A stretch of 64,000 nt of DNA from Apostichopus japonicus (lineage: Eukaryota; Echinodermata; Holothuroidea; Aspidochirotida; Stichopodidae). The notes under the pieces are model-generated. The model ran no database searches. It was not told where the DNA came from and was given only the letters and a program-made list of their open reading frames with translations. Positions within the stretch are counted from its first letter, which is position 1. Every line of letters starts with the position of its first letter. Location of the stretch: the NCBI RefSeq assembly GCF_037975245.1, contig NC_092569.1:15745501-15809500 (forward strand). The letters run 5' to 3'. This document shows positions 5,801 to 61,459 of this stretch, in pieces. Position numbers and translations under genes: made by a program.

Positions 5801-8800
5801 GACAAATAGCGGCTCTTTTCTTTTTAGACGATGTGTTAGCCATTAGATTATATCCGTTTGAAGAACGTTCATCATATTTGGTATTATATTGGTTCAAAAA
5901 TGGTCAATATTTTCCACTCTGGTATTAATATAGAAGGGAATATTTGTCTATACTTATCTGACATTTCAAATCAATTTAAAAATAACATATCGTTAGGATA
6001 TTCTTCATTCAAAATAATATTAAGCGCGTTCCACCAATTCATCAGTAATAACGATTCGTTGCGAAAGAAAGAAGCAGTGTAAGAAATTCCAGCAATATTC
6101 AAATACTATACTGAGCACACATTGCGATTGCCTTGGTTGACACAGGTTATTACATAATGCGTTGTTACATTTCGTGTTATTTTGTATTGAAGTTTGCGTC
6201 AAAATGGTATTACATAACTCGTAAAATGCGTCTTGCGCCAAAAAATTATTAGGCCTACACGTTCAGTTATGAATTTTTTTTGCGGCGAAACATATCTGGT
6301 TAACACTACATTTTGCGTCAATTATTATATTTTTTAAAGACGATATTCAATATATGTTGACTGATTCACAGACTAAAAGGTATGTTGATAATTATGGGTA
6401 TAGGTAATAATGTCGCGGGTATACAGCATTCTTGCATAAGTTACCTCAGAGGAATAGCAGTATCATCAAGCAGTGTGCTCATGCAATTAACATTCCAAAA
6501 GAAAGAAATTGTTTGATTCTTAAAATGAAATAAAACTATAAATAAACTATGTATATAAATTAAAGAAAACCAAGATGAAACACGATTTCGTGTTCTGCTA
6601 TATTGTACTAAAGTTAACACAGACTGATCTTTTTTGTTGTTAAAATATGACTTCATATTAACAGAAGTCACTGTCAATTATGACTTCATATTAACAGAAG
6701 GCGCAAACGAACTTCAGTATTATGGTAGAATATCAAATTTGGCTTAACACTGTCCTTAAGATGTCGGCATACCACAACCATGATTGTTCCATTGAATTAA
6801 ACCCGCGGTAGACCCGAAATAGAACTTGCGTAATCCCATTGTAATATTTTACCCATTCCGCAAGGCCATAACACTGATGGGTGTAACTACTTCTGTTCAC
6901 TTTATTGGGTCCTGACTGGAGCAATATGCTAACGAACGGTAGTAGTTTTAGGGGTATGCCGGTTTCCAGCTTGGAAACAACATCCGTCTATAGTAATTTC
7001 CCACAACTGTGTAGGGCGAGTTTTCGTCAACGCCTGGCCAGACTTGACAGATCGGGATTTACATTCCATAAATCAGTAAGGTCTGCATATGTTCTTTCTT
7101 ATATAACCTAGTAGCCAGATCGCAAGTTAGACTTTTGCGAATGACATAGAAAATGTATCAAAGACTTTTTCCTTAGACTTCTTCACCCTCTCCCCCCCCC
7201 CCCCCATTCAATTCAATTCAAGATATGGTACGTGTACACAGAGAATAGTTAGCTTTTATAGTGTTAGGAATTTTCATATACGCAGATGTTTGTCATAAGA
7301 AAACAGTTTTTACATATACTATTACTTTCTCGTTGTGCTTCAATAACGCACATTTAACACAACCCGTTTATCTAGATACCATAAAGATTTGGAGTCTAGA
7401 CATTAACATCTACTAAGTTAAATTACCACTGTTATTGTTCGGAAATGTTCATTTGTTTACGCTAGAAATTCTTTCCGTTTATCATAAACTTCCCCAAACA
7501 ATAATCTGCACAAGGTTATAAACGTAATAGAAAATCACGATTGAAGAGAGACACATTTATATGTGTGCCAAATATGCAATTTTATTTTGGAAAAGATAGT
7601 TAGTTTATAGGCCGTTAAGTAAAGATATCTTACAATGTAAATATGCAAGTATGCATACACATGGTATCTATAAGTTTATCCCTTCTGTTGTCAATGATAC
7701 GACATTGGCTAAGTTGTTAGGTAGCCAAAGTACCATTAAACTAGGCACGTATGCAGATGTTGGCATGTAACTTTTTCTTTGTGTTGTCGAAGCTACGAAC
7801 TTTCCCTTTTGTTAAATGATGTACTACCAGCATAAACAGTACAAGGTAATACAGGGTTGGGTTCAGTTGCACAAAATCTAGAAACATGCAGGCATACATC
7901 ATGTATGCCGTGTAAGCCCTTATATACTTGGTAGAGTTCAAGAATCATCATCGCGTGGGATGAGGTAATGTCTTGCATGGCAGGCAGATAGCCAGCGTTC
8001 GTGATATGATGGAACAAACGAATCTTTATCACCATCCTAAGAGTCCGAGAACAAAGGTTTCATGATACGATGTAGGCTCTAACCTAGCGGGGCAAGCATA
8101 TTTTTTTTTGTAGTGGGAGGATAAGATATGTTACCGTCCAGAGAAGGGTCTAAACAGACATTTATCACCTTTTGGGAGTTTTAGTAAAAAAGGAAGGAGC
8201 TTAGATGCAACATGGTGCTATATTTTGCAACTTTTTAATAAAATGTTGAAGGATTTCGACTGCATATATATCAACTATTAAAAGAATACTTCGTATTTTT
8301 TTGTAAAAGTCTGTCTGTCAGTGGAAAGGAGTTGGGTGGGCTTCCTGATTTCTTCTGGGGATTGAAACCGCCAAAGATGTACGTTGTTGCACCCTTGATT
8401 TACCCTCTGTATCGATTTCAAATTTTAGTTGGGGAGGGGGGGGTCACCAAATTTGGCTTACATCCGTTATGGGGAAAGATCTTAGCAAACATGTTTACTT
8501 TGGTAAATGGGGAAATTATGATATTATTTCCATCATCTACAATACATTTTGTAGTAGAACTTCAAAACTTCCCAAAGCACTTCCCTATTTAACATTACAA
8601 GCACGTTGTATATGATGATAGTATTGACCGCGGAAACTAAAGTCTAGCGAAAATGTAATATCATTATTGTTTCCTTACATTTTTCAACTGTTCTAGGATC
8701 AAATTGAATACAAAATCTACATATTTCATGGAGGCAGATTTTTGTGACGCATAAAGTCGTACGGTTAAGTGTTTTATTCAAAAAAATGAGAATAATCTTG

Positions 8801-43250: not shown

Positions 43251-46200
43251 GTGAGTTAAACTTTTTACAATTTCTGTTCTTCATTATTATAAATCACGTT
43301 TCTTTCTTGTTTGTTAGATGTTATTATTTAAGCCTGGGTAATATGTTTTACACGTTTCTTTCTTGCTTGCTGGGTTATATAAATTCCCACAAAACTTAAG
43401 AAAAGTTTTATTACTTGATAGCCTGTTTTACAATTACTAGTACAACATTCTTGTTTTTAGTAGCTTATGCAGTTGGAATATTGCAACTGATATGAAAGTA
43501 ATTTGATTTTTGCGAGTAACAATTCTTCTTCAATAAATTCCTTCTTTCCAAAATAATAATCTATCTTCTACAGCCTACAGAAGGGTGCGTTTTTGGTGTA
43601 AAATTTGCACTGCACCTTATAATGAAAATATTGCATAACAAATTCTATTTTTTGCTTAGTTAATTTTGAAATCTTACATTGCCTTGAGAAACTTTCTCTT
43701 ATATTGTCAATAAATATCGCACGTTATCGCTTATGTATTCCTAAATATATCTATTTAACCACACGTCGCTGATTTGTTCAATATAACACTAACGCGTAAA
43801 ACTAGAATCGTATGTTTTACGTAATGGCTTAGAACATAACCATTAACAATTTCAGAATAACATAAACATTTGTGAAAGTTATTTTAAGACATTTGAACAG
43901 TTATATCCTAACTATTTTAGAAACTTTGATGTTGAAACGTAACTTTGATGTTACACTAAATCTCATTGACCATCATCAAGTCTCTATATTTCCTAACTAA
44001 ATACGGATAACTGTCTCTTTAAAAATCGATTTGACTACATTAGTACGCTAAGTATTGCAAAACTACAGTATAGGTTAATCGTACTCGAAAAAAAACCCTT
44101 TAAATTTGATTAATTAAGTATTCTACCTTCGCTTGAAAGTCTTTAATCGTAGCAAAAAATATATAATAATCATATGTGCAGTCCGCTTTCTGTTACATAA
44201 ATTCACTCCACTTCATGTCCAAGTGGCGCCTTTTCCGTTACGCGTGAACAAGAGTCAAAGTTAAATATTTTAACGATCTATTGTATAATTGAGAAGATAT
44301 TAGAAATTATTGATCATTCCATGTCTTTTTCTCCTGTTATATATGTTTTTAACTTATTGTTGAGCGTTAAAATCATATGAACAAAGTTGTTTAAATATTA
44401 AAGGCAGAACTGTAAAATAACAACGTTGTTCGCTATCATAGCGCACTATCATAGAATTTCACATATTTACTTCGGAAATATCTACGGTGATAAATTACAT
44501 ATAACAAATACCTCTTTATGATAAAGTTTATAATTCAAATTCGTCCTCTTTGTCCTTGTTTGCCCAATTAACTTCGTTTAACGAGACTTGGTTCATTGTC
44601 GGATTTAAATTACTTAATTTTAATGAAGAAAGAACAGATATTTTCAAAACTTGATGCAATAATGTACTAATATATTTTCAAATTAGTTTTATTTGATTTT
44701 TTTCTTAGTAAGCATTAGTAAATCTTTGAAAGCTAACATAAACACTAATGCATATTTGCCTTGCTAAATTGCACTTAACAATTAGCTTCCGTGCAATACT
44801 TGCACGGGTAAACTTCAATGGCTACAAATCTCTTGCAATAATATACTTTAGTCTATACCGTATAGTAACTTGTACAATATTCAGAACTTTGAAATTATTG
44901 TTAGTTTAAACTAATAATATGTAGATGTTTATCTCGTTCAAATTCGTCCTTCTCGTTGTCTTAAAAAGTACTTAGAAGTTCCAAATACCGCTCTCCCATG
45001 ATTTTGAAGATTAATGCACAATTATAGAGTTTATGTCCTTAAACTATCAAGCAAGTAGTTTATAACTAAACAATTAGACCCTTAAGTACAATATTTTCAT
45101 ACTCTTGGAATTTGAAAAGTATCTGCACAGGTTCTATACTAGAAAAATAATTCTCGGCGATTCGCATCAGAAGTTAACAAAAATTACACCCTTAATTCGT
45201 TTTACTGTTTTTGTTATGTAAGGTTAACTCGGGTTGTAACTTAGTATCGGATATTGCAAGGTACATGCATATGTGTTATTTTTTCGATTTAGTGTATTTG
45301 CACTTTGAAGCATATTTTTTTCTAGTAACATCGTCAATATCTCAGGTTAACCTAACGTATGCAATTGGTGCATTTCATACAGTGTCGTATTCCCATGTCA
45401 ACCAATAATGTACTTACACGGTGTACAAAAGGTCAGGTACATCCCTCACTACCCAAAAAGTCACTTTAACAACCAGATTTTCCGTCGGAATCTTCACATG
45501 TTGCTTGGCAAGTACATGTTCCGTAGATAATGTTTGTTGGACATGTAGATGACAATGTAGCTGTCAGTTGGTAAGACCAAGAAAATACATCCAATTTTGA
45601 CAAGAATGATTGGAAACACCTCTGCCATGAAATGTGATCGTTTCTCCATTTAACAGTTATATAGTAAAATAAGAAGGAATTACATTGACAAATATGGAGA
45701 TTGTAGAAACGACTGGATGTATATGAATAAAGTTATGTTGTATTAGTATTAACGTTTAGTTTTTTACTTACGTGCATTACTTTCGAGTGGTCCAATATGT
45801 GTAACCTTATATTGCCCCCATTCATCAGTGATACGAAAATCTGTGTATGTTTTGTAGAAAGAAGCTCCATTTGATAATTCGATATCCACACAAACTTCGT
45901 AGTCTGCTTGGTTCGTCAAATATGATAACTTTTCATTGTCGAGCCAAAACTCAGTTGAGAGAAAACCAAATCCATCTTTATACTGTGACCAACTCCTATT
46001 GAAATTAACAGCACCGCTATCGCGGCGTTGTGTGACCTATAACAGAAGAGGAACATATTGCGAATAATATAACCAATTAAATACACTCTCGAGAATGTAC
46101 TCGAGTAGGAAAAGTACAATTGAATGTATCCATTTATGTCACTATTAGGAAAGATCGTCTCCGAAAATAATAGCTATATCCCAATTTCGACGTTACTGAG

Positions 46201-49200
46201 TGGGGATGCGACTTCCTGATTACCCTGCACATTTTCAAGTCATAGTACCTACATGCTAACGAAAGGCCTTATCACGTTTAAAATATGACATCAACATTTC
46301 CATTTAGACGTTTCGTCCAGCTTTCCACCAACGTTGTTGTTGCAGTACACCTCAAATGGTTGTTCATATCCATCTGGCTTGATAATGTATACTCCGTTAG
46401 AGCTGGACGCAGAACATTGACTTTGAACGTCTCGGCAGTCCTTTGGATATTCAGAACGTTGATAAAAGAAGTAATGATCCACTGTAATAAAGAGATCAAA
46501 ACATTAACAAATTATATAATATGCATGATTTGTGTTCAATTTGTAACACAAACTTGTCACCGTATACAATACTTCACCGTTAAAGAAAATCCTGCAAAGA
46601 AATTGACAATTCTCTGAGATTTTAGGAGATAGCTAAAAATCGCAGCAGGAAAGATGGAACTTGAAAAGTAACATGAAAACCTAACATCAAAGTTGGTACC
46701 TATGTCATTTCCTTTGTTAGAATACGTTGCATTCCTTTCTCTCCCTCTTTGTCCTATTCCCTAACTATTTTTTGCTTTATTATTTTCTTCCGGGGTGGGG
46801 TTGATATGATTTATATAATAAAACACTTGTTAAAAATTTCTTGTCTTGTTTACAGTATTATAGGTTGTAAAATAGCACCTATTTGACATATATTTTTGAT
46901 GACTCTTCGTCTCATTAATGAAGAATTTATTTATCGTAACTGTTTGTAAAGAACTATTAATTTTTTTTCAATCTCATGTATCAAATAATCATGTACAGAC
47001 AAATTAAGAATGTTGGAAAATAAACAATTTCAAAATGACACATTGACATATATTTTTGATGACTCTTCTTCTCATAAATAGATTATTCATCGGAGAAGTT
47101 TACCTTCAACTACAGTGGACACTCAAAGTAAGATATTTCACCTTGAACTGCTTTGTTTTTCATTCCATCTATATAAAAAAATGTAATTCACCAAAATAAA
47201 TGACTTTTGTTATTTCCAAGATAACTTTCTGTTTTTGTTTCTGTTTCATTGACCGTGTCTGTGTGAGACAGCAATTAGTATGTTACTTTCGACGACTTAC
47301 AACAATCCAAAACTTACAACCTTTAATACTGCAAAAAAGACAAGAAATTGTTGACAAATGTTTTTTATAATGTATGTAACATCGACCCCAACCCCGATAA
47401 AAATAAAGCAAACAAGGGTTAGGGAAAAGGGCAGAGAGGGAGAGAAATGAATGCAACGTGTTCTAACACAGGAAATGATATATGTACCAAATTTGATATT
47501 ACTTTTCAAGTTCCATCTTTCCTGCAGCGGTCTTAGCTATCTCCTAAAATCTCAGAGAATTGTCAATTCAGGAATTCAGGCAGGATTTTCTTTAACGGCC
47601 AAGTATTGTATACGTCGACAAGTTTTTGTTACAAATTGAACACAAATCATGCATATTATATAATTTGTTAATGTTTTGATCCCTTTATTACAGTGGATCA
47701 TTACTTCTTTTATCAACGTTCTGAATATCCAAAGGACTGCCGAGACGTCCAAAGTAAGTGTTCTACGTCCAACTCTAGCGGAGTATACATTATCAAGCCA
47801 GATGGATTTGAAGAACCATTTGAGGTGTACTGCAACAACGACGTCGGTGGAGGAGGAGGCTGGACGGTACGTCTAAATGGAAATGTTGATGTCATATTTT
47901 AAACGTGATAAAGCCTTTCGTTAGCATGTAGGTCTAATGACTTGAAAATATATAGGGGTAATCAGGAAGTCGCATCCCCACTCAGTAACGTCGAAATTGG
48001 GAAATAGCTATTATTTTCGGAGACGTTCTTTCCTTATAGTTACATCAATGGATAACATAAATTGTACATTTCCCACTCGAGTACAACCGAGAGAGTGTAT
48101 TTGATTGATGATAGTGTTCCCAGTCTGTTTCTCTTCTGTTATATATAGGTCATACAACGCCGCGATAGCGGTTCTGTGAATTTCAATAGGAGCTGGTCAC
48201 AGTATGAAGATGGATTTGGTTTTCTCTCATCTGAGTTTTGGCTCGGCAATGAAAAGTTATCATATTTGACGAACCAAGCAGACTACGAAGTTCGTGTGGA
48301 CATAGAATTATCTAATGGAGCTTCTTTCTACACAACATACAAAGGTTTTCGTATCACTGATGAATGGGGGCAATATAAGGTTACACATATTGGACCACTC
48401 GAAAGTAATGCACGTAAGTTAAAAACTTTATAAAAAGTAAATACGAAACGTTAATAATAATAATACAACCATAACTTTATTCATATGCATCTAAGTCGTT
48501 TTCTACAATTTGCATACATTTTCAATGTAATTCCTTCTTATTTTAATATTTTACTGTAAAACTGAGGAACGATCATATTTCATGGCAGAGGTGTTTTCAA
48601 TCATTTTGCCAAAATCGGATGTATTTTCTTGGTATTACCAACTGACAGCTACATTGCCATCTACATGTCCAACGAACATGATCTACGGAACATGTACTTG
48701 CCAAGCAACATGTGAAGATCCTGACGGAAAATCTGGTTGTAAAAGTGACTGTTTGGGTAGTGAGGGCTGTACCTGTCCAGCTGGTTTCTTAATGCAAGGC
48801 AGTTACTGTGTCAGTGCGAGTGAATGCGGGTGTTTTGTAGCAGAGGCCAACTTGATTATACCAGTGAGTATCTGAACGAATTTCATTTCAATATCACATT
48901 ACTATAGAAATGAAACAGAATCTAAGCTAACTGACCTTGTTTCAACACAAAGTCTCAAAGTCTGAGAAAACACACCCACAATGTTTAATAAATATCATTT
49001 TTATATTTTCATTAAATAACTTTTAGAGTGGGCAAACATACGTTAACGATGACTGCACACAACATTGTTCTTGTAACAATAACCAACTGATCTGTGAAGA
49101 CTACGTCTGTAATACTAATGCTGTGTGTGATGTCAGGAATGGAGTACGACAGTGTTATTGTAATGAGGGATATGAAGGTGACGGTGAAAATTGTCAATAT

Positions 49201-52200
49201 AGAGACTACCAGGATGTGTATGACGCTGGCCATAGACAAGGTGGCATATATACAATCATGCCTACGGGATGGCCTGGTTTACCATTCGACGTAAATTGTA
49301 AAATGGAAAACGGCGGGGGATGGACCGTAAGTTTTAATTGAATCACTATAAATGTTTCAAGTATGTTTCTGGGATTTTTTTAATGATCTAGTCTACTGTA
49401 AACGGTAATAGAAGCACAACTTTATGTTTCAGGTTTGGTTGCATTTTTGTAATTCCTTACCATGGATTCAGTATATTAAAAGAACTTATCAATGAGTAAA
49501 CGAAAACGGTGACAACCCTTAAAATGAACCCCTCCTAAGAAACAAACAACGCTCAGAAATGTCTTAAGTTTATCAGACTGAAATATCATTCTATAGATAT
49601 AGGCTATAATCAGTCGTGCGGTATTCTTAGATTAAGTTTGTCTGTTAGCATACTTCAACGACTCCCTTATTATCTTTCTTTTATTTTTCTTACCCGATGT
49701 CCTTCCAGGTGTTTCAACGTCGTTCTGATGGCTCTACGAGTTTTTATCGAAACCGGGCTGCGTACAAAGACGGCTTTGGTAACAGCAGGAACTTATGGCT
49801 AGGAAATGAAAAGCTTCATTACTTGACGAACCAGAAAAACTACAAGCTTCGATTTGACATCACTACTTTTAGTGGATCAGCTTTATATGCTGAGTATACA
49901 GAATTTCAAGTCGAGTCTGAAAGCAGCAACTACACAATGAATAAACTGGGCACTCGCAGAGGAAATACAGGTTTGTTGCATGATTGATATTTGCGCCTTG
50001 CTTGGGTGATAGGTCAAGTTAAAGTGACTAGTATGTTCACAATAAACTTCATTAGAAAATTGTACGTCATGGTTTCAACACATCTTCATGTTAAATATTT
50101 ACTTCAAAAATGCTCCATGTACACTAAGTGTTGTATTGTTGTAAGGGAAAAGAAGGTTCCGTCTCGAAAGGGATTGAGCCAGTGATCTGAACAATTGCAA
50201 AAAAATCTCGTCCCATCTGGACCCGTTATTTTAAAGAAACAGTTATGTGTAAGATAGTTACCGCATCATTGTATCAATTGAATACCGGTGGTATCAATTA
50301 CAAAATATTGAAGGAGTCTGACTAGCCGATGAAAGAGAATGTATGATGTATGAGAAAGCATCAGTCTAAGAACAGGATATATAATGGAAGAGAAATACGA
50401 CCATATATCTTTCCAGAACCATTAATAGAGAATATAAGTTTCCAGCAAACACAAACTTCTAACAGAATAATGTTTCTTTCAAGATATGCGAAACAATTAT
50501 ACCAAGAAGAGCCACACACCGTGTTTGAAGACAAAGACAACCCTGGATAAAATTACAATGTGAAAGTAATAACTAAAAACTAGTTAATAGAAAGCCCAGG
50601 ATTTACTTCACATATAGAATCAAACACAATATATTCTAATTTAATCATAATATTTATTATAATAATGCAATAATTTCCTTTAGAAAAGCCTAGTTTTCAT
50701 ATTAAAAATCATTAATTTAAATCCAAATCAATGGTCACTTCCATTGATCTGTAAACCTGATTAAACTAAAGAGCAATAAAGAATAAATCAGCTCATGAAG
50801 TATCTTTAATTATCACGGAAATATCACATTAAAAATGAATTCTGAATCTCTTTCAACGTGAAACCTCATCGCCCCCACTTCTCAGTAGACTTTAAAACTT
50901 ATTTATATTCCAACAATAGTGTGCGACATATCAGGTTTCTTACGCTATTGTTCACGGTCAAGTATATTGATCGCTGATGGTTCTTGCTGTTTTCCTTCAC
51001 ACACTGTAAATTTTAATTAGTCATATACACATGCCAAAATGGTCAAATGACTAATTTTGCATTAGTCAGAATTTTTGACTAATTTCATCGGTCATATGAC
51101 TAATTAAAATGGCTAAAGACCAATGAAAGTTAGTCATTGTCCAAAATAGTGACGAAGCATAATTAGTCAATTGGGAATCACGAAATTTGATTTCAAAGCT
51201 TTATTTGTTATTTTTGGTCTTCAAGGTTTTTTGTTATTTACTTACAAACAACTTCCGCGCCACAATATGGATGAATATTAAAAAAAAAATTCTAAAATCA
51301 CCAATAATTAAAAACCCAAGGAATAATGGATATGCTATATAACAATTTTCGGTTAAGTGTAAACTCTAAGACGTCATAAGAAAAATTTCCACAAATTTTT
51401 GGGGGAAATTGATAATTACTTATAGCAAAAACTTAATGAGGTTAAGGCGATATTCCAGCACCGGTACTAAAACGTCTTCGTCATTTGACTAATTTAGAAT
51501 TCACAAATGACGTCAGATATACGTAGCCGCGCGTGCGCACTCTGCAGGCGCCAGGCCTCTAGCTCTCGATGATTTCGACGCCATATTTGATACTGCAGTA
51601 AGAAATTCTGGAGCCGAGAAAATGTCTGCAATCGCAAGGTGGGTGTATCTTATAACTTTACTAAATTGTGATTTAATTGCAAGTTATTCTTTATTTAGTA
51701 TTTTTAGAATAGATAGTTAAATTGATGAAAAGTAAATTACCAGTTTTAGTTCTGCTTAGCAACAACGAACGTTCGTCGTTCTAGCCTAACGTTATGCCAT
51801 ATGCATGATATGTGCAGGATACCTCATACTCACAGGCCTAACGTGATGTGCACACAAATTTATCTTTGTTTATTTTTAAATGTTAACCTGAGTAGGGCTT
51901 AGCTTATTTACTGTTCAAATCGATGAAATTGTCAGACTGAAAGTAACGGTGAACAGCGTTATAACTACGGTGGTCGGCACTGGGCGGGCCCGACCAGCAC
52001 GGAGGATTTCCGCCAACCACTCCGGATGAAAAACACTGCTTCCGACCGGCACTAATTTCACATAAAAAAACTGCTTAAAACGTAACTATTTGTGAATAAA
52101 AGTGTTACTTGCATTAATATTTCCGTCCTTAATCGTGTTTTATTTGCAATTGTACAAGAATCATGTTTTGCGAGGACTATTTTCCTGAATGTTTGAGATT

Positions 52201-55200
52201 TAAAAATCTAAAAAAACTGAAACCAAATCACAATCTAACTTCTTGTACACGTGCACATTAGCGTGAACCAGAGCCTAAACATACAGGACGGCTATAATCC
52301 TACCTATGGAGAACAGGACCTAAACTCTCTAGCTAGGTGGAAAACAAGAGCCCAAGGGCACTGTGGTTCCTTGCTTGGGGTATATGACAATACACATAAT
52401 ATTATCAAGCAAGATTGAGCTCAAATAGTCCAAGTAATTGTGGTCCTACATGTTCCCATAGAGTAACCAACACTATAGCCAACACTTTTGTGATCACAAA
52501 ATGTGATCGGATTTTGGATCAAAAGGCACTTTTGAGATCTAAATATGGCGTCGAAAATGTAAGAAATATAAGAGACCTACAAGCGTGTCAACAGATATGA
52601 TAACATTGGTGACCTCAGATGACATGACCTTTAAGTTTCAAAATGTTCCACCACCCCGTTCACAACTTGTCCCAAAATATCAACCATGTCACACCTTGGC
52701 ATTGAGATTTAATTGCATTAAATTAAAAAAAATTAACTTTGAACTTGTATACATAACTTCACACGCAAAGGTCACCCGAAGGTCAACCAATTGACATTTT
52801 TGATCGGTGAGACCTAAATAGAGCATGACTGTAAAAATTCAAACATTTTTTCTTTGCCCATTTTCTCCCCCCAAAATACTACTTTTTTAACATTAGCTGA
52901 CCTTTGGTGACGTTGGACCACATGACCGTTAAGTTTGAAAATATTCCCCTATACCATTTGCAACTTGTCCAAAAAAATAAACCTTGTCACACCTTGGCAC
53001 TGGGAGTTATTGCATTAAATGTGTGAAAATTAACTTTGACCTCATATAACTTCGCACACGAAGGTCACATGGGGGTCAACCCATTGATATTTATGATCAG
53101 AAGGTACCTTTAACATCTGAAAATAGCATCGAAACTGTAAAAATCCACAAAACACGAAAAGATCAACAGAGGTCAAATTGAGGTCAAGGGTCACCCAGAT
53201 GCGAGTCGACAATTGGATTACATTGAAGCAACTCCCAACCCTAACGGACAATTTCTTCTCAAGTTATCGCAAAAATACTAATTTTTTTATCATTAATTGA
53301 CCTTTGGTGACCTCGGATCACATGACCCTTAAGTTTGAAAATATTCCCCTATACCATTTGCAACTTGTCTCAAAATATCAACTGTGTAACACCTCGGCAC
53401 TGAGAGTTATTACACTAAATGTCTGAAAATTAACTTTGACCTCATATAACTTCGCACACGAAGGTCAGACGGGGGTCAACCCATTAACATTTATGATCAG
53501 AAGGTACCTTTAACATCTGAAAATAGCATCGAAACTGTAAAAATCCACAAAACACGAAAAGGTCACCAGAGGTCAAATTGAGGTCAAGGGTCATCCAGAT
53601 GCGGGTCGACAATTGGATTACATTGAAGCAACTCCCAACCCTAACGGACAATTTGTTCTCAAGTTATCGCAAAAATACTAGTTTTTTATCATTAATTGAC
53701 CTTTGGTGACCTCGGATCACATGACCGTTAAGTTTGAAAATATTCCCCTATACCATTTGCAACTACTCCAAAAATATGAACCTTGTCACAACTTGGAACT
53801 GGGAGTTATTGCATTAAATGTGTGAAAATTAACTTTGACCTCATATAACTTCGCACACGAAGGTCACACGGGGGTCAACCCATTGACATTTATGATCAGA
53901 AGGTACCTTTAACATCTGAAAATAGCATCGAAACTGTAAAAATCCACAAAACCCGAAAAGGTCACCAGAGGTCAAATTGAGGTCAAGGGTCACCCAGATG
54001 CGGGTCGACAATTGGATTACATCGAAGCAACTCCCAACCCTAACGGACAATTTCTTCTCAAGTTACCGCAAAAATACTAGTTTTTTATCATTAATTGACC
54101 TTTGGTGACCTCGGATCACATGACCCTTAAGTTTGAAAATATTTCCCTATACCATTTGCAACTTGTCTCAAAAAATCAACTGTGTAACACCTTGGCAATG
54201 GGAGTTATTACACTAAATGTCTGAAAATTAACTTTGACCTCATATAACTTAACATACAAAGGTCACCTTGGGTCAACTTATTGACATTTTTGATTGATGA
54301 GACCTAAATTAGAGCATCAAACTATACAAATTCAAACATCTTTTCTTTGCCCATTTTCTGCCCCAAAAATACTAGTTTTTTAACATTAATTGACCTTTGG
54401 TGACCTCGGATCACATGACCGTTAAGTTTGAAAATATTTCCCTATACCATTTGCAACTTGTCCAAAAATATCAACCATGTCACACCTTGGAACTGGGAGT
54501 TGTTGCATTAAATGTCTGAAAATTAACTTTGACCTCGTATAACTTCGCACACAAAGGTCACACGGGTGTCAACCAATTGACATTTTTGATTGGAAGGTAC
54601 CTTTGATATCCAAATCTAGCATCAAAACCAAACATTTCCTTTTTTGCTCGTTTCCTCCCAAAATAAGCACATTTTTTCTAATGTGACCTTTGACCTTTTG
54701 ACCTTGGTTTCAGTTGTAGTTTAATCTCCTGATTCCAAAAAACAAAACGACAAGTCTGTACAACCATCCAAACTCCGACCGAAAAACTTTGACCCCATAT
54801 AACTTCGCACATAAAGGTCACACGGGGTCAACCTATTGACATTTATGATCAGAAGGTACCTTTGACATCTGAAAATAGCATCAAAACTGTAAAAATCCCC
54901 AAAAACACGTAAAGGTCACCAGAGGTCAAATTGAGGTCAAGGGTCACCCAGATGCGGGTCAACAATTGGATAACATTGAAGCAACTCCCAACCCTAACGG
55001 ACATTTCGTTCTCAAGTTATCGCAAAAATACTAGTTTTTTATCATTAATTGACCTTTGGTGACCTCGGATCACATGACCGTTAAGTTTGAAAATGCTCCC
55101 CTAACCAGTTCACAACTTGTCCCAAAATATCAATCTTGTCGCACATTGGCACTGGGAGTTATTGCAGTTTTAATATTTTCAGTTTTTGGACCATAACTGA

Positions 55201-58200
55201 CCTTTGGTGACCTTTGTGGGCACCAGAAACAATAGGGCACACCTTCTCCATATGGCGGATCTATAGTCCAAGTTTGGCCTCAATCCAACATTCCCTTATT
55301 GAGATAGAGCGTACCCAAGCAAGTGTCACAGACACACACACACACACATACATACACACACACACACACGCCAACCTGACTGCATAGGTTCCTTTTGCTA
55401 AAGCAAGGAACCAAAAATCGGTTTGCTGTAGGGCAATTTTCGCACTCCAGCGGATCTGTACTTTTTTTTTAGCGAGCTAAATGGTAAACATCCCTTTTCA
55501 TATCATGTATTGATCACTGGATTGGGGGTTTACAGCATTTGGTCAAGTTTTCTCGAAAGGGTGTATTACAATAACGTTTCTGGAAAAGTTTGTCCAGTAC
55601 ACGTGTCATGATCATACCGGGGCTGAGCTATACAGCAGCTTGAAGGTCCTCTGCTTCATGCACTGCAATACGATGTGGTGAATTGAACTGAAACTGTTTC
55701 GCAAATAAGCTTGCATAAAATTTTCACCGAATAGTCACTTATATCTCTAACCCTATGGCAGCCTAACAACACACTAAGTCAATGGGGGAAATCAAGTCTA
55801 ACTATATGTTTATTCGCTGAACCTGTGACGCAGTAGGCTGGCACTAAAATTATCCATGGTTTAGAGGGCTGTACTACTATTATGCAGATATTAACGTTAC
55901 GGTCAATGGTCTTTGTAGTTAGCATATATGTGTAGCGTAGCTTAATTGTTTTGTTTGACTTTTGGTATGTCAACATTGGTTTTCTGTAGTTCTTGGGGGC
56001 ATAGTTTTAATGCAAATGGCTAATTCCCATTTTCAATTGTAGTTGCTTACCACTCGTTGAACAAGGCTAACAATGTACAAGGCGCAGGTAAAGGCTATAC
56101 TTATGTGCTGTTTTTATCAGACTTTCGAGTAGCCCATTGTCACAATCATTGATAAGTGACTAAGAAATTATATTTATGAGGTTTGATAACGAGGAAGATT
56201 TGCAAGAATTATACATAGTATTGACTCTCGGACATTTGGTAGCGGCGGATTTTAGTGTATAAGGCAATTGTATTAATGTTTTGAGGGAGATAAAATTGGA
56301 CTATATTTCATTAAAAAATGCCAGATTTCTACAGTTTCGAGTGAAATTCAATTAACCAATGCGAATTGTATCCATCGATATTTGGATTAGTCTCATTCTG
56401 TTGGTGTATGTAAGAAACAAAAAGTGAATTCATCAATCCCATTAACACATTTGAAAATCAAGGGCACTACGGTCAATGGCAGGTTGTTCCTACTAGGCAG
56501 AAACCGTACTGAGCCCTATATTTGTTATCCAAAATTTAAATTCTTTTAAAGTATTATAGTTTTTTGGGTCAACTATGCTCTTTATACTTTTTTTGGCAAT
56601 TGCACTTTTTATGCCAATTAAGGTCTCTAGTGATGTCAAGAGTGAAGAATTCCTAAACACTTCCTGATAAATTTGAATTTGTTAGTGATTTTTCAGAATG
56701 CTGTTGGGTGTGATCATGTTAAGTGCCAAATCATGCCACAGTAATGACTGTTTCTGCCTTCATGATATTGTGGGGAAATGTCAATGATGTAATGGCTTCT
56801 AATAAGGAGAAATTACATGACTGAACAGCATTGGCAATTTGGCACTCAGCCTGTGACACCCCTTGAAATTTTAGCTGCTCCTGCACTAACACCCACTAGA
56901 AGTAACCTTTATATTCAACTTGATTTTTTCCCTCACAACCAATAATGTAAATATCAGTGAATGGTGTGCAAGTAGGTTTATTTGTCAAACCCTGATATTG
57001 ATATTTCTGTATATTTATTTCCAACAGGTATGCAAAGAAGAGGGCATCCATGATTTGTTCATAGCTCCATGGTTGTAGGAAGGTCTTATGAAGTATGGCA
57101 AATCTGTACTACTTAAGGTGTGCCAGTCGATGAAGAGAAAGGGTGAGGTCTTTTCCTGGGCAGTTGATGAGATGCAAGGGCAATGAGATGAGCAGAGTAA
57201 GAAGGGTACATTCCATTATTTGATTATTTATTAATATTCAGTGAGGAAGTGTTGAATGACTTATCTCTTTGATTTAATAGAGCCCAAGTCGGGAATGGCT
57301 TAAAGATTCAGGTAACATGGAATTAGAGGAGGGACTTAACCTTAGATGTAATGTTGCACAGTACACCAGTATTTGAAAAAAATATTGGTAATTACCAGTT
57401 CAAGCAAGGTACGATACCACAAAAATGAAAGGACCGAAGTACCATCAGTGGCAATACTTATGAAATAGTGTAACTGGTGATAGCATGTATTACACATACC
57501 CTATATCACATAGTTCTGAAGACAAAGTAAAGTATGTTGCTTATTTATCTTTTTTTGGGAACCCAAGTATTTCTGTGAAAACACTGTATTATCGGGTGCC
57601 ATTTTTGTCAGTACAACTAGTGCTTGTTTTCAACAGTACCATGCAATTTCACTCAGATGGGTTCATCAGCACGAAAGCAAGCATCAAATAGTGGATCCTA
57701 AATAATTGAAGCAGACATTTTGCCTGTCATGTTTATGACACACATGTTTATGATTGCTTGTGTGGTGCTTCCCGGGTCAGTACTAAAAAGGAATCCTGAT
57801 CAATGAAGGGAGACTATTTTGCTGTCATGTTGTACAGGTTATATCAGCAGAGCTCTGACAAGGTTTATAATAGTTACATTGTTATGAATTGCAATAAAGT
57901 CCTGGTGAGAAGGAGCCATGTTATGAATTTGTATGAAGTCCACGAAGCGGCTATCCTGAGGTTTGTCCGATTTAAGAAGAACACAAGGTGCTGCAGAACA
58001 ATAAAGACGAAGCGTTATTCAGAAACATTAAAATTTCAATGTATAAGAGAAGTAACCGACTTTATATGGGTATCATTGTCATTGTACACATCTAATTATA
58101 ATTCTTATTTATTTTGTCAACAGATGCCACTGCTGTTGCTGCTGTGCTTGGTATTCCATTGCTGTTGAAGGAGAAAATAAAAAGCTTCCTGATATTTGCT

Positions 58201-61200
58201 GATGAAAGTGTAAGGACATATTTTACCCTTCAAGTCCCATGGGATCTTGTCATAATTGATTTGCAAGTGCACTTTTCAAAAAATTAAAACTAGACTTTAC
58301 CATTTCGCTACGTTACAGGACTGTTTGGTGTCATTCAAAAGAGCTAATCTTTTTTTCAGAAATAAAATGACACTTTTTTATGGTGGGGGGGGGGAATATT
58401 GAATACTGCCCTCCACCACACAAGGGCAGTCCAGACAAAGGGGAAAAAGTTCCCCTTTACAGTGTTGGATATATATATATTTCACTTGGGAACAACGGCA
58501 GTTTTTTGACAAAATATGAAATTTAGACAAAATTGGCATAAAATCCAACAAAATTTGCTTGAATTTCTGATGTAACCTCAAAAGCCAAAAAAAGGGTCAA
58601 GTACCAAAAAAAAAAATCGAAATTTTGTAAAACAAGTCTCTAGGATCAAGGGCATGTAGTGTGGGGGAAACTTCTGCCAGCCATGTTAAGTCCGCCATTC
58701 AGTGGGGTGGGGTGCTGGGAAACTGTATGAGGTTCTTGTTGTATTCGCCATTGTGTGCCCTTTTTCAACACAAAGTGCCCCTTTTGTGGGGATTTGTCCC
58801 CTGCCCTATTCCCATGTAGGCGTCCCTGTTTGTACATTCTTTTACCAAAAGAATATATGTGGATGCCTTTATGATCTGTAGATAGCCCCTAATGTTTTTA
58901 TTAGTGATATATATATGGTCAATTCCATTTAAACTTAGCATGGTGGTGTTGGTGTAAACATTTGCCATTTTAATTTGTTCAGATTAATTTTCATGAGTGG
59001 ACAGGGACAGCAATGAATTTCCTACAAAACGCTTGTAAATCTCATGAGAAGTAATGTGATGGGTGTTAAACCAAATTAATAGCCAGTTTGAATTTCATCT
59101 TGAAAGCAAATGTTTTTTCATGGTATTTGGAAACAACAGTTGGCACTAACTGAAGGTGAAGAGTTGGTCTCTGAAAATGTAGGCCATGTGACCATACCTT
59201 TGACGCATAAGGAACAGCTGTGCAAAAAAATATGACCTGTAAAACTGTTCATAATCTAAGCACATTAGTATTATAAATTTCTTATCAATATATGTGTGGA
59301 GTGTATGGTTTTGGCAGATTGTTTTGTGATTTTATTGTTACTTTTGAATTGTCCAGGGTTAGTGTTAGAACTAATTTTTAACAGAGAAAACAAATTTTCC
59401 AAATTTAAATGCAGCTTGATTGGTTGGGATTTATTTTACTTGTCGTGAAACTGCATGCAGCTAGACAACAGCCATTTTGCTTAAAATCACACTTGAATGG
59501 GAATTTAAAAAAGTGGTGTAGAAAGCCAAATTATTTCAGGTTCAAGTAGGGTGACTAAAAGCCACATTGATACCAATAATCACCTGTATCATACCATGTA
59601 AAATATTATGGTGTATTTTCTTGCTTATAGAATGAAGACCCCCAAGCCTCTACATCAGGGGAAATGGTGCCACTTATGGAGAATCAACCTGCTTTACAAT
59701 ATTTGTTGATGGGGAAGAAGTTGGATCTTGCAGTCTGCTGATTTCGGATTTGTCTTCATACATTGCATCGTTTTACGTTTTCGACTTAGCTTACCCCACT
59801 ATTTGAAAGAAGACCATGGTATTCATTCAGAAAATCATCTTAAGCATTAATGACAATTTTAAGTTAGACCTTTCCATTTTAAGTGTGTTGGAGAGGGTTA
59901 ATCAAAACCTCTAGGTGTAAAAACAAGAATAGACATCTGACCGTTGTCGTTTGTCTGCTGTTAAAATGAAATTATCATACTTTTAAACTAGTTGATACTT
60001 AAAATGTAATTCATAATAAGATTTAAATATTTAGCCCTCTACATCAAGGGAAATGGTCCCACTTGTGCAGAATAAACCCACTTTACAATATTTGATGGGG
60101 AAGAAGTTGGCTCTAGCAGTTGGTTGATTTCAGCTCTGTCAGCATACATAGCATACATAGCATCATACTATGTTTTCAACTTGGCTTATCCCACTGTTTG
60201 TAAGAAGACCATGGTCTTCATCCAGAAAATCATCCAGTATTTTCTGGTCAACTTCACATTTGTTGTGTAGCAGTACATTTTAAAGCAAGGATTTGAGTCA
60301 TGACATGACATATGTTTTTAATAGAACTTTGACTTTTCAGTTCTTATTAAAATGTATTTGTCCATTATGTATGAGTGGACATACTGCTGTATAATTTTTA
60401 TATCAATATATTGTATTTCCAATCCTCTGACACAATTTGGTGATTGGGACAGCCATTTGGGACCAACTTGTTTATAATATTTGCATCCCTTGAAACAGTT
60501 CTCTGAAAATATTGGCTTAATCTGACAAAGTTTTTTATAATGATTGAACCATGGGAGAAATATCACCCCATTCTAGCTGTAACACTCCTATTGAGGGTTT
60601 TCATGTATGCTTTTCAAGATATGTTATAGCAATAAATGGGTCTGGTAAAATAAAGCCATGATTTCTGTATTTTTCATTCAAACATACCTTTTCAACCTTG
60701 CAATAGGATTTCCTTCATTTACCCCACAAGACTGCCCAATTTGTTTTGTTTTTTTTTCTGGGAGGGGGGGGGGTCGGATTGTATTAGCAACAGCCAGCAG
60801 GAACCCTGAGTGAAATTTACAGATTTTATGCACACGAATATCTCTACACAAACTGGAGGCCCAAAACATCTGCTAAAGTGAAATCAAAATCGTGATGGAT
60901 GGCGCATTAGTCTGATGACTAATGAATAACAGGTCAAGTGCTGTGTAGGACTAATTTTGGAAGTCACCAGACTAAATGAATGGTCATATGACTATGATAT
61001 ATTAGTCACTTGACTAGTTTAGCTAATTAGTCATACGACTAATCTTTGCTGGTTAGTCATTTGACTAATTTTAATAAGGCGTACGAAGCACTGTGCAGGA
61101 CTAATTTTAATTAGTCAATTTGACTAACTTAGATTAACAGTGCAGGTAATTCTCTTGCTAATAACAAAGGGAAACAATTCAGCACGCATGGCCGAGACAA

Positions 61201-61459
61201 TGACGAATGCGATACCTTCAACTGTGCAGAGAAGCACAGAAGTGGCTGGTGGCACTCGAATACTTGGTGCTTGCATTGTCGTGATGGAAATTGTCTTTAT
61301 TTCCAATACAGCGACAGCTGCCATTCTCTGTGTACTGATGACAACCTCAATGGTGTCTACAATGGAGGCAACGGGAAAAAGATATTCTCTTACTATTATA
61401 TTTATAGTTACCACTGCAGCGCCCAGTTCGTTGAAATGAAAATTCGACCATCCTCTTGA
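43170..61459 (+). CDS. FReD gene copy D, open but probably degenerating (8 exons, 551 aa)
   Basis: Exons: 43170-43250, 47082-47127, 47694-47866, 48149-48413, 48649-48863, 49027-49326, 49709-49970, 61146-61459. The joined frame is open, with one extra Gly codon in exon 3, four codons fewer in exon 6 and one fewer in exon 8 than copy B. Damage signs: the first FBG cysteine in exon 6 is Tyr (RDYQDV for RDCQDV); the conserved Trp of exon 7 is Arg (FYRNRAAY for FDQNWAAY); the TATA-like box is gone; intron 1 holds an inverted duplicate; and a 10-kb transposon splits intron 7 at the splice acceptor. Exon 8 is the most divergent of the four, with pocket core CLHCRDGNC. It may be expressed, mis-spliced or dead; sequence alone cannot decide. 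Confidence 0.75.
45431..46481 (-). pseudogene. Inverted, truncated FReD fragment (exons 3-4-5) in copy D intron 1
   Basis: On the minus strand the order is exon 3 (46481-46314), exon 4 (46036-45772) and part of exon 5 (45560-45431), with intron sequence between them. Exon 4 is open (NFNRSWSQYKDGFGF). Exon 3 has lost two bases near GGGWT and its donor GT is AA. Exon 5 has a TAA in place of a Lys codon, a Cys changed to Phe, and breaks off after GCT. It therefore cannot make a normal product. Confidence 0.9.
46482..47037. repeat. Patchwork of inverted and direct intron pieces
   Basis: About 46482-46870 is inverted intron 2. About 46883-46919 is a short block in plus orientation (TGACATATATTTTTGATGAC). 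About 46925-47035 is inverted again (its complement reads TTCTTTACAAACAGTTACGA). Normal plus-strand intron 1 then restarts with the same TGACATATATTT block near 47044. Confidence 0.7.
47082..47127 (+). CDS. Copy D exon 2: 46-nt linker exon
   Basis: ATAG acceptor and GTAAGA donor. Reads IIHRRSLPSTTVDTQ plus the first base of Met. Confidence 0.75.
47694..47866 (+). CDS. Copy D exon 3: start of first FBG domain
   Basis: DHYFFYQRSEYPKDCRDV, then NNDVGGGGGWT with one more Gly than B. Donor GTACGT. Confidence 0.9.
48149..48413 (+). CDS. Copy D exon 4: core of first FBG domain
   Basis: VIQRRDSGSVNFNRSW, YEDGFGFLSSEFWLGNEK, DYEVRVDIELSNG. GTAAGT donor. No damage seen in this exon. Confidence 0.9.
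48649..48863 (+). CDS. Copy D exon 5: TIL domain
   Basis: TLPSTCPTNMIYGTCTCQ, DGKSGCKSDCLGSEGCTC, GSYCVSASECGC. All TIL cysteines are kept. Confidence 0.88.
49027..49326 (+). CDS. Copy D exon 6: TILa/VWC-like, EGF-like, FBG start
   Basis: 100 codons. The linker after GENC is shortened to QYRDY, and the cysteine that opens the FBG domain is Tyr (TAC for TGC), leaving its partner in VNCKMENG unpaired. Confidence 0.9.
49709..49970 (+). CDS. Copy D exon 7: middle of second FBG domain
   Basis: VFQRRSDGSTSFYRNRAAY with Arg replacing the conserved Trp, then GFGNSRNLWLGNEK and the N-Y-T sequon. GTTTGT donor. Confidence 0.9.
49971..51001 (+). other. Copy D intron 7, original 5' part
   Basis: Aligns with intron 7 of A-C up to GTTTTCCTTCACA, where the transposon begins. 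The decoy acceptor CTTCTCAG (to 50885) and the native polypyrimidine tract are both still here, stranded about 10 kb from exon 8. Confidence 0.85.
51002..51190. repeat. Left terminal and subterminal repeats of the transposon
   Basis: Terminal CACTGT followed by many TTAGTC or GACTAA motifs, including GGTCATATGACTAATTA. Arrangement mirrors that at the right end. Confidence 0.8.
51508..51540 (+). promoter_or_regulatory. CRE and NRF1-like sites inside the transposon
   Basis: A perfect TGACGTCA (51508-51515) is followed by GCGCGTGCGCAC (51529-51540), which resembles an NRF1 site, in a locally GC-rich patch about 85-110 bp before a short ATG exon. This looks like a housekeeping-type promoter inside the element; activity is inference. 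Confidence 0.45.
51622..51638 (+). other. Possible short first exon in the transposon
   Basis: ATGTCTGCAATCGCAAG before GTGGGT, just downstream of the promoter-like sites. It joins in frame to sequence after CCAACAG at 57027 (RYAKKRASM), which soon hits a stop. Could be a remnant of a captured or transposon gene; family not recognised. Confidence 0.3.
52163..52261 (+). pseudogene. Possible THAP C-terminal fragment
   Basis: Short frame MFCEDYFPECLRF followed by KNLKKLKPN resembles the C-x-x-HF...LKPxAxP end of THAP zinc fingers, with the zinc-ligand His replaced by Tyr. Only about 30 residues, so it may be chance. Confidence 0.3.
52600..55190. repeat. Tandem array of ~400-bp units
   Basis: CAAGTTATCGCAAAAATACT recurs at about 53259, 53659 and 55012, with one substitution at 54060; the half-site cluster at 53560 recurs at 53959, giving a 399-bp period. 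Six to seven full or partial units. Two 69-codon minus-strand frames exactly two units apart come from this periodicity and are not genes. Confidence 0.85.
53560..53593 (+). promoter_or_regulatory. Nuclear-receptor half-site cluster (DR4-DR5-DR1), unit example
   Basis: AGGTCA, 4-bp spacer, AGGTCA, 5-bp spacer, AGGTCA, 1-bp spacer, GGGTCA. The same cluster is intact at 53959-53992 and 54913-54946; the unit at 53170-53193 has lost the first half-site. Binding is inference from motif identity. Confidence 0.5.
55331..55370. repeat. (AC)n microsatellite
   Basis: CA-dinucleotide run with small interruptions (CATACATACA) at the right end of the nested repeat. Confidence 0.9.
55413..58123. other. 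Transposon interior, mostly non-coding
   Basis: Single-copy AT-rich sequence. A possible exon starts at 57028 after TTTCCAACAG and closes within 13 codons; a second frame there reads MKYGKSVLLK and is also broken. A 121-codon frame at 57803-58168 has no recognisable domain. I see no intact gene. Confidence 0.5.
58124..58209 (+). pseudogene. Exon-like fragment in the transposon
   Basis: Between CAACAG and GTAAGG, a clean frame reads ATAVAAVLGIPLLLKEKIKS and then FLIFADES. It has coding-like composition and splice sites, but no linked intact exons. Family not identified with confidence. Confidence 0.4.
58380..59630. other. Transposon interior without recognised gene
   Basis: Contains a G-run at 58384-58393, a short TA repeat near 58468 and AT-rich sequence. 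No conserved motif is seen. Confidence 0.5.
59631..60250 (+). pseudogene. Two tandem copies of a degraded 3' exon
   Basis: First copy about 59631-59860, second about 60035-60250. Both share GGGGAAGAAGTTGG, a hydrophobic segment (IASFYVFDLAYPT in one, IASYYVFNLAYPT in the other) and KKTMVFIQKII. The first opens NEDPQASTSGEMVPLMENQP but meets a stop and needs a frame change to reach the hydrophobic part. Likely the end of a multi-exon protein gene, duplicated then decayed. Confidence 0.5.
60251..60890. other. Transposon interior before the right end
   Basis: AT-rich, with a T-run followed by a G-run at about 60748-60774. No gene recognised. Confidence 0.5.
60900..61142. repeat. Right subterminal repeats of the transposon
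   Basis: Dense TTAGTC...GACTAA palindromes (ATTAGTCTGATGACTAAT, TTAGTCATACGACTAAT, TTAGTCATTTGACTAAT) and the terminal ACAGTG. Spacers between the half-palindromes vary. Confidence 0.85.
61143..61145 (+). other. Rebuilt splice acceptor of copy D exon 8
   Basis: The CA target duplication plus the native G restores CAG directly before exon 8. Two competing AGs (61131-61132 and 61139-61140) lie inside the transposon end, and a branch-point-like GACTAAC lies at 61122-61128. The native polypyrimidine tract is not adjacent. Confidence 0.7.
61146..61459 (+). CDS. Copy D exon 8: FBG pocket and stop
   Basis: Open frame NSLANNKGKQFSTHGRDNDE, NCAEKHRSGWW, pocket core CLHCRDGNC, NLNGVYNGGNGKK, VEMKIRPSS. 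The calcium loop is GRDND: Gly replaces the first Asp. One codon shorter than in B. Confidence 0.88.

What the first reader, a model, noticed from the sequence alone, without database searches (positions are those of the whole stretch)
51000..61145. Transposon inserted inside a splice acceptor, with the target duplication rebuilding CAG
The 10.1-kb CMC-like element split the CACAG acceptor of copy D intron 7. The duplicated CA followed by the native G recreates CAG exactly at the start of exon 8, so reading phase is unchanged. An insertion into an essential splice site is thereby potentially neutralised at sequence level.
Basis: seen in the sequence. Interest (0 to 1): 0.85.

Follow-up and report, generated by a model that had tools for sequence, protein, structure and literature searches.

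The report
Transposon inside a gene's splice acceptor
In a sea cucumber fibrinogen-like gene, a young 10-kb DNA transposon sits inside the signal that ends the last intron; the small duplication it made keeps the letters CAG next to the exon, but the rest of the signal is now 10 kb away, so splicing is probably weakened rather than untouched.

Summary
A terminal-inverted-repeat transposon (51002-61142) sits between two copies of CA, and the joined flanks read TTTTCCTTCACAG|GT as in paralogues B and C. The genome fits Apostichopus japonicus (inferred); the genes are tandem FREPs. Of 17 complete family copies examined, 16 have 2-bp duplications (12 TA, 3 CA, 1 TG): an ordinary insertion, not an assembly join.

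"Neutralised" is not supported. An insertion removes no base, so CAG beside the exon is automatic. Branch-point region and pyrimidine tract stay 10.1 kb upstream. In a small matrix from this gene family's acceptors, the empty site lies at percentile 99.8 (exon 8 held out: 95.7) of window AGs and the rebuilt CAG at 52.4 (48.6). The element's end supplies a CTAAC branch-point-like motif, but also a CAG 5 nt upstream that would shift the frame; the native tract now faces a TAG in the element's left end.

Most likely: acceptor strongly weakened, some correct splicing possible. The "10.1-kb CMC-like" element is a ~7.1-kb non-autonomous element plus a nested 3.07-kb insert; its superfamily is unproven. 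No RNA or population data were available.

The parts
49709..49970 (+).
   Evidence: Alignment of A-D; PF00147 on the ORF piece 49649-49981
50967..51001 (+). Native branch-point-like motifs (TTGAT, CTGAT with A at 50977) and pyrimidine tract of the last intron, ending in the left CA of the duplication
   Evidence: Sequence; conserved region in family acceptors. The branch point itself is inferred from motif only
51000..51001 (.). Target duplication CA, left copy
51002..61142 (+). Terminal-inverted-repeat transposon, composite, CACTG...CAGTG ends, non-autonomous
51018..51020 (+). TAG in the left end: first AG after the native tract, possible capture site, 43 nt from A 50977
   Evidence: predicted product; low matrix score
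52348..55412 (+). Nested insert with ~400-bp tandem repeats and a terminal hairpin; not part of the host element
   Evidence: limits approximate within the flanking A-rich bases
61124..61128 (+). CTAAC branch-point-like motif in the element's right end (A at 61127), 13 nt before AG 61140 and 18 nt before AG 61145
   Evidence: its role in splicing is inferred
61138..61140 (+). Element's own terminal CAG: competing acceptor, use would add 5 nt and shift the frame
61143..61145 (+). Right copy of CA plus native G: rebuilt CAG acceptor
61146..61459 (+).
   Evidence: (PF00147 E 4.6e-08)

Best explanation
A low-copy, non-autonomous terminal-inverted-repeat transposon that makes a 2-bp target duplication (usually TA, here CA) inserted recently into the last-intron acceptor of one member of a tandem FREP array, between CA and G of TTCACAG (shown). 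Because CA was duplicated, the exon-side junction again reads CAG (shown; automatic). The native branch-point region and pyrimidine tract were not rebuilt at the exon: they lie 10.1 kb upstream, and the new upstream context is the transposon's end (shown). Inferred: the acceptor is strongly weakened. The element's end offers a CTAAC motif and two CAGs 5 nt apart, so some transcripts may be joined correctly at 61145, some out of frame at 61140, and others captured by TAG 51020 behind the native tract, or lost. Expected net effect: reduced or mixed output of full-length copy D, with sister copies as possible backup.
For: Exact ends, duplication and paralogue-matched empty site. Matrix of 19 acceptors from this gene family: empty site at percentile 99.8, rebuilt CAG 52.4, CAG 61140 56.0 among 3,169 window AGs; with the exon-8 class held out 95.7, 48.6 and 58.5; rebuilt CAG ranks 234 (256) of 510 AGs in the element. 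Pyrimidines 16 of 20 in the empty site, 9 in the filled site, 12-17 in 21 family acceptors. No second AG in the 12 nt before 22 of 22 located family acceptors; one in the filled site. [quoted passage not shown]
Against: No RNA was seen, so no splicing outcome is shown. The matrix is small and from one gene family. CTAAC 18 nt before the rebuilt AG is a good motif that only 9.4% of window AGs match at 15-45 nt (CTRAY). AGs within 12-15 nt of a branch point can be bypassed (PMC1431707, passages), which would favour 61145 over 61140. TAG 51020 scores at percentile 5.4-7.9. A 13-kb CACTA element in a soybean intron is spliced out accurately, at lower levels (PMC4219821, passages), though it does not split the acceptor.
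Confidence: 0.65

Rival explanations
1. One reading: the rebuilt CAG neutralises the insertion; the element simply becomes the end of a longer intron and copy D is spliced normally and in frame.
For: CAG and phase are intact; CTAAC lies 18 nt upstream; large elements can be spliced from introns (PMC4219821, passages).
Against: Pyrimidine tract lost at the exon, average-AG score, competing CAG 5 nt upstream.
Confidence: 0.2
2. Capture at the left end: the intact native branch-point region and tract use TAG 51020, giving a C-terminally truncated protein with a 20-residue transposon tail.
For: No AG between A 50977 and 51020; first-AG preference (PMC7317903, passages); the predicted product ends after 20 residues; AATAAA/ATTAAA motifs follow from 51103 on.
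Against: The tract ends about 19 nt before this AG and the site scores at percentile 5.4-7.9; the terminal exon and its polyadenylation are not shown.
Confidence: 0.3
3. Copy D was already a failing gene, so the insertion changed nothing that mattered.
For: D has an arginine where A-C have a tryptophan in the penultimate exon.
Against: The exons examined are open; dN/dS of D against B and C is 0.34 and 0.39 over 417 codons, and B against C 0.32 over 422.
Confidence: 0.1
4. The family targets splice acceptors.
For: 4 of 17 target sites read YAG at the junction (copy D, L041, L048, L049).
Against: At the junction on the + strand only D scores as an acceptor (percentile 95.7; the other three 18.9, 83.8, 44.9). 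On the other strand two AGs within 6 nt score as high (L046 96.1, L056 97.4), with no gene evidence sought. TA is the usual target, 12 of 17.
Confidence: 0.02
5. Assembly artefact joining unrelated sequence.
For: None found.
Against: Both ends coincide with the ends of other family copies, flanked by a duplication, with a paralogue-matched empty site; the assembly is reported as built from HiFi long reads (PMC10344927, passages).
Confidence: 0.01

Closest known systems
TgmR*, a 13-kb CACTA element in Intron2 of a soybean MYB gene (PMC4219821, passages read)
   Same: Large DNA transposon with subterminal repeats in an intron; intron reported as spliced accurately but at lower levels.
   Different: It lies near the start of the intron, not in the acceptor; 3-bp duplication; RNA evidence exists there and not here.
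Introners (PMC9860276, passages read)
   Same: Target-site duplication and element ends together provide splice-site letters.
   Different: Introners create new introns in many copies; here one copy split the acceptor of an existing intron.
Outlaw TRIM insertion in AUX/IAA16 of Bassia scoparia (PMC12277486, passages read)
   Same: A transposable element supplies splice letters, and the transcript changes.
   Different: LTR-type retrotransposon with 5-bp duplication; 19 bases of it enter the mRNA; outcome shown by sequencing.
dSpm/En termini used as splice sites in maize (recalled, no paper seen)
   Same: Ends of a cut-and-paste element acting as splice sites.
   Different: Experimentally shown there as I recall; only predicted here.

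Membership tests
CMC / CACTA (EnSpm) transposons | CACTA/CACTG-type terminal inverted repeats | tested here: met
   CACTG...CAGTG ends; perfect match between the two ends is short (CACTGT)
CMC / CACTA (EnSpm) transposons | 3-bp target duplication (as in soybean Tgmt* and TgmR*) | tested here: not met
   2-bp in 16 of 17 complete copies, none in 1. Other CMC branches with 2 or 4 bp are recalled, from no call
CMC / CACTA (EnSpm) transposons | Subterminal repeated motifs | tested here: met
   TTAGTCA/TGACTAA-type repeats at both ends; CTAAY 6 times in the last 200 bases, 0 of 1,000 shuffles reach it
CMC / CACTA (EnSpm) transposons | Transposase of the superfamily | tested here: inconclusive
   No ORF over 122 aa wholly inside the element; 3 ORFs tested, no Pfam match above cut-off; autonomous partner not found
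Tc1/mariner transposons | Strict TA target duplication | tested here: not met
   TA in 12 of 17, CA in 3, TG in 1, none in 1. That the family is strict for TA is recalled
Introners | Creates a new intron in coding sequence in many copies | tested here: not met
   Paralogues A-C have this intron without the element; no other copy shown to be an intron (looked at target sites only)
FREP (fibrinogen-related protein) genes | Fibrinogen C-terminal domain | tested here: met
   PF00147 above cut-off in 5 of 6 exon pieces of copy D; the sixth is TIL

The most novel reading that the evidence does not exclude
The ends of this family are portable acceptor modules: subterminal CTAAY repeats plus a terminal ACAG|TG, read outward at both ends, put a branch-point-like motif roughly 13-18 nt before an AG, so the element can be tolerated at or near acceptors in either orientation, with its target duplication completing the site.
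Probability: 0.1. Interest if true: 0.55.

Novelty: new member of a known kind. Interest (0 to 1): 0.35.

Why it matters
It is a clean natural experiment: near-identical tandem genes, one of which has its acceptor AG separated from its branch-point region and pyrimidine tract by 10 kb at base-exact positions. Junction reads from a carrier would show whether the spliceosome follows the native tract (51020), the element's own CAG (61140) or the rebuilt CAG (61145). It also shows that 'repair' of a splice site by a target duplication restores only its last letters. FREP genes are reported as expanded, and up-regulated during visceral regeneration, in this species (PMC5638244, passages).

Tried and rejected
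Rejected: assembly join (exact ends plus duplication). Acceptor targeting (see rival). L057 as the autonomous partner: its extra 5.2 kb has its own 27-bp inverted repeats and a 4-bp AATT duplication, so it is another transposon nested in a family copy. L048 as a second acceptor insertion: percentile 83.8 and no gene evidence. An empty allele within the assembly: the next match to the exon query is 84% identical, so none was seen, but 40 of 118 candidates were scored. A first dN/dS run read exon 7 in the wrong frame and was replaced.

Literature: for a transposon at an acceptor restored by its duplication I saw listings (titles and starts of abstracts) (15 of 18 listed; 9 of 9; 5 of 5; 7 of 7; 10 of 27 listed); none I opened or saw listed describes this exact case. 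That is no proof that none is in print. Passages of eight papers were read; no paper was read whole.

Dropped rows: L006 and L008 had no locatable acceptor (21 of 23, which also left out L075; 22 of 24). L051 has no duplication and is counted as a miss. Four copies with one end only in the fetched stretch (L053, L054, L057, L058) are outside the 17. One search aligned 12 of the 17 complete copies.

Full report
WHERE IT IS. The window is C9:15745501-15809500 of a 671,581,487-base genome in 35 contigs. This is close to the Apostichopus japonicus assembly (671.6 Mb, 34 scaffolds, 23 chromosomes of 18.21-46.02 Mb; PMC10344927, passages); the contigs seen range from 18.20 to 46.04 Mb. Size and counts agree closely but not exactly, so the species is an inference. 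The genes are a tandem array of fibrinogen-related proteins: of six exon pieces of copy D, five match Fibrinogen_C above cut-off, one TIL, one also TILa; an EGF match is below its cut-off. FREP expansion, and a cluster of 21 tandem FREP genes, are reported for this species (PMC5638244, passages).

THE OBSERVATION. The element runs from 51002 to 61142. CA stands on either side, and G at 61145 completes CAG before the last coding exon. The joined flanks align without a gap across the junction to copies B and C, which share TTTTCCTTCACAG|GT; A differs (CCAACACAG|GT) and has an alignment gap just inside the exon. The left 200 bases match 20 places in the genome including this one, and the last 23 bases match 22 places with up to 2 mismatches. 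Of 17 complete copies, 12 have TA, 3 CA, 1 TG and 1 no 2-bp duplication. This is a genuine insertion and not a join of contigs.

THE ELEMENT. No ORF over 122 aa lies wholly inside it, and three ORFs tested have no Pfam match above cut-off. The 16 other complete copies are 4,287-9,375 bp long, 14 of them 6.1-7.1 kb; the window copy is 10,141 bp because of a nested ~3,065-bp insert with ~400-bp tandem repeats that 16 of 16 lack at that place. CACTG ends and subterminal repeats resemble CACTA elements, but the 2-bp duplication differs from the 3 bp given for two soybean CACTA elements, and no transposase ties it to a superfamily. In an alignment of 12 of the 17 copies it differs from its nearest relative L040 at 52 of 6,342 sites, and 25 of 7,032 sites are private to it. 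The insertion is therefore young and may be polymorphic (inference).

WHAT IS AND IS NOT RESTORED. An insertion removes no base, so CAG beside the exon is the expected outcome of this cut and not evidence of repair. What matters is the rest of the acceptor. In the FREP family the bases before CAG are conserved by eye. The 20 bases before the last three hold 12-17 pyrimidines in 21 located acceptors of 23 loci (these include A, B and C), 16 in the D empty site and 9 in the filled site; 71.6% of 3,166 window AGs have 9 or more, 1.0% have 16 or more. A matrix from 19 acceptors puts the empty site at percentile 99.8 (exon-8 class held out: 95.7) of 3,169 AGs and the filled site at 52.4 (48.6). The matrix comes from one gene family, with exon limits set by homology, and is a rough guide.

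THREE COMPETING ACCEPTORS. (1) CAG 61145, in frame, 18 nt from a CTAAC in the element's end. (2) CAG 61140, the element's own last CAG, 13 nt from that CTAAC; its use adds 5 nt and changes the whole last exon, which stays open in the other frame. AGs closer than 12-15 nt to a branch point can be bypassed, and AGs less than 12 nt apart compete, the preceding base being important (PMC1431707, passages); here both are CAG. (3) TAG 51020, the first AG after the native branch-point region, 43 nt from the putative branch A. [quoted passage not shown] Its use gives a 20-residue tail and a stop, but the site scores at percentile 5.4-7.9. Weighing these, I give weakened or mixed splicing 0.65.

SELECTION. 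The exons of copy D that were examined are open. dN/dS against B and C is 0.34 and 0.39 over 417 codons, like B against C at 0.32 over 422. This mostly reflects the time before the young insertion.

IS THE SITE CHOSEN? Among 17 target sites, 4 read YAG at the junction, and only copy D scores as an acceptor there on the + strand; on the other strand two AGs within 6 nt of a junction score as high, without gene evidence. I see no support for acceptor targeting.

THE BOLD READING. The right end holds CTAAY six times in 200 bases (mean 0.47 in 1,000 single-base shuffles, none reaching six), and both ends read outward as GACTAAY...ACAGTG. The ends could therefore act as portable acceptors. The motif is more simply explained as a subterminal repeat for transposase binding (recalled for CACTA-like elements), so I give this 0.1.

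VERDICT. The sequence claim is correct; 'neutralised' is unproven and, on sequence evidence, unlikely to be complete. The kind of event is known: splice letters recruited from target duplications in introners (PMC9860276, passages), a large CACTA element spliced from an intron (PMC4219821, passages), and splice motifs changed by an inserted element (PMC12277486, passages). Its value is as a base-exact natural experiment with paralogue controls.

Noticed in passing
window 52348-55412; related repeats in L046 (element positions about 6863-8446): Nested ~3,065-bp insert with ~400-bp tandem repeats, a terminal hairpin GGTTCC...GGAACC and A-rich target; resembles satellite-carrying Helentron-type elements (listing of PMC7492417 and PMC4067079 seen; resemblance otherwise recalled)..
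   Followed up: partly
L057 2438-7612: Another transposon nested in a family copy: 27-bp perfect inverted repeats, 4-bp AATT duplication, 875-aa ORF with DUF7869 just above cut-off.
   Followed up: partly
window 45431-46597: Inverted copies of the exon 2, 3 and 4 regions of copy D (arms 93-95% complementary to 47580-47851, 48144-48427 and 48606-48778) lie in the long first intron of D; the pre-mRNA could form long hairpins.
   Followed up: no
window 61143-61151: The rebuilt site reads CAG|GTAATT, which also resembles a donor; CAG|GTAAT recurs in paralogues L062, L069, L070, L071 and L073.
   Followed up: no
window 49709-49970: Copy D has arginine where A, B and C have tryptophan in the penultimate exon.
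   Followed up: no
window 48149-48430 and counterparts in B and C: The first Fibrinogen_C domain is followed by a TIL exon, without an identified exon for its C-terminal part: an apparently truncated first domain.
   Followed up: no
L040, L045, L049 flanks: By eye, the target sites of these family copies read like coding sequence (fibronectin-III-like in L040, reverse-transcriptase-like in L045 and L049); no search was made.
   Followed up: no
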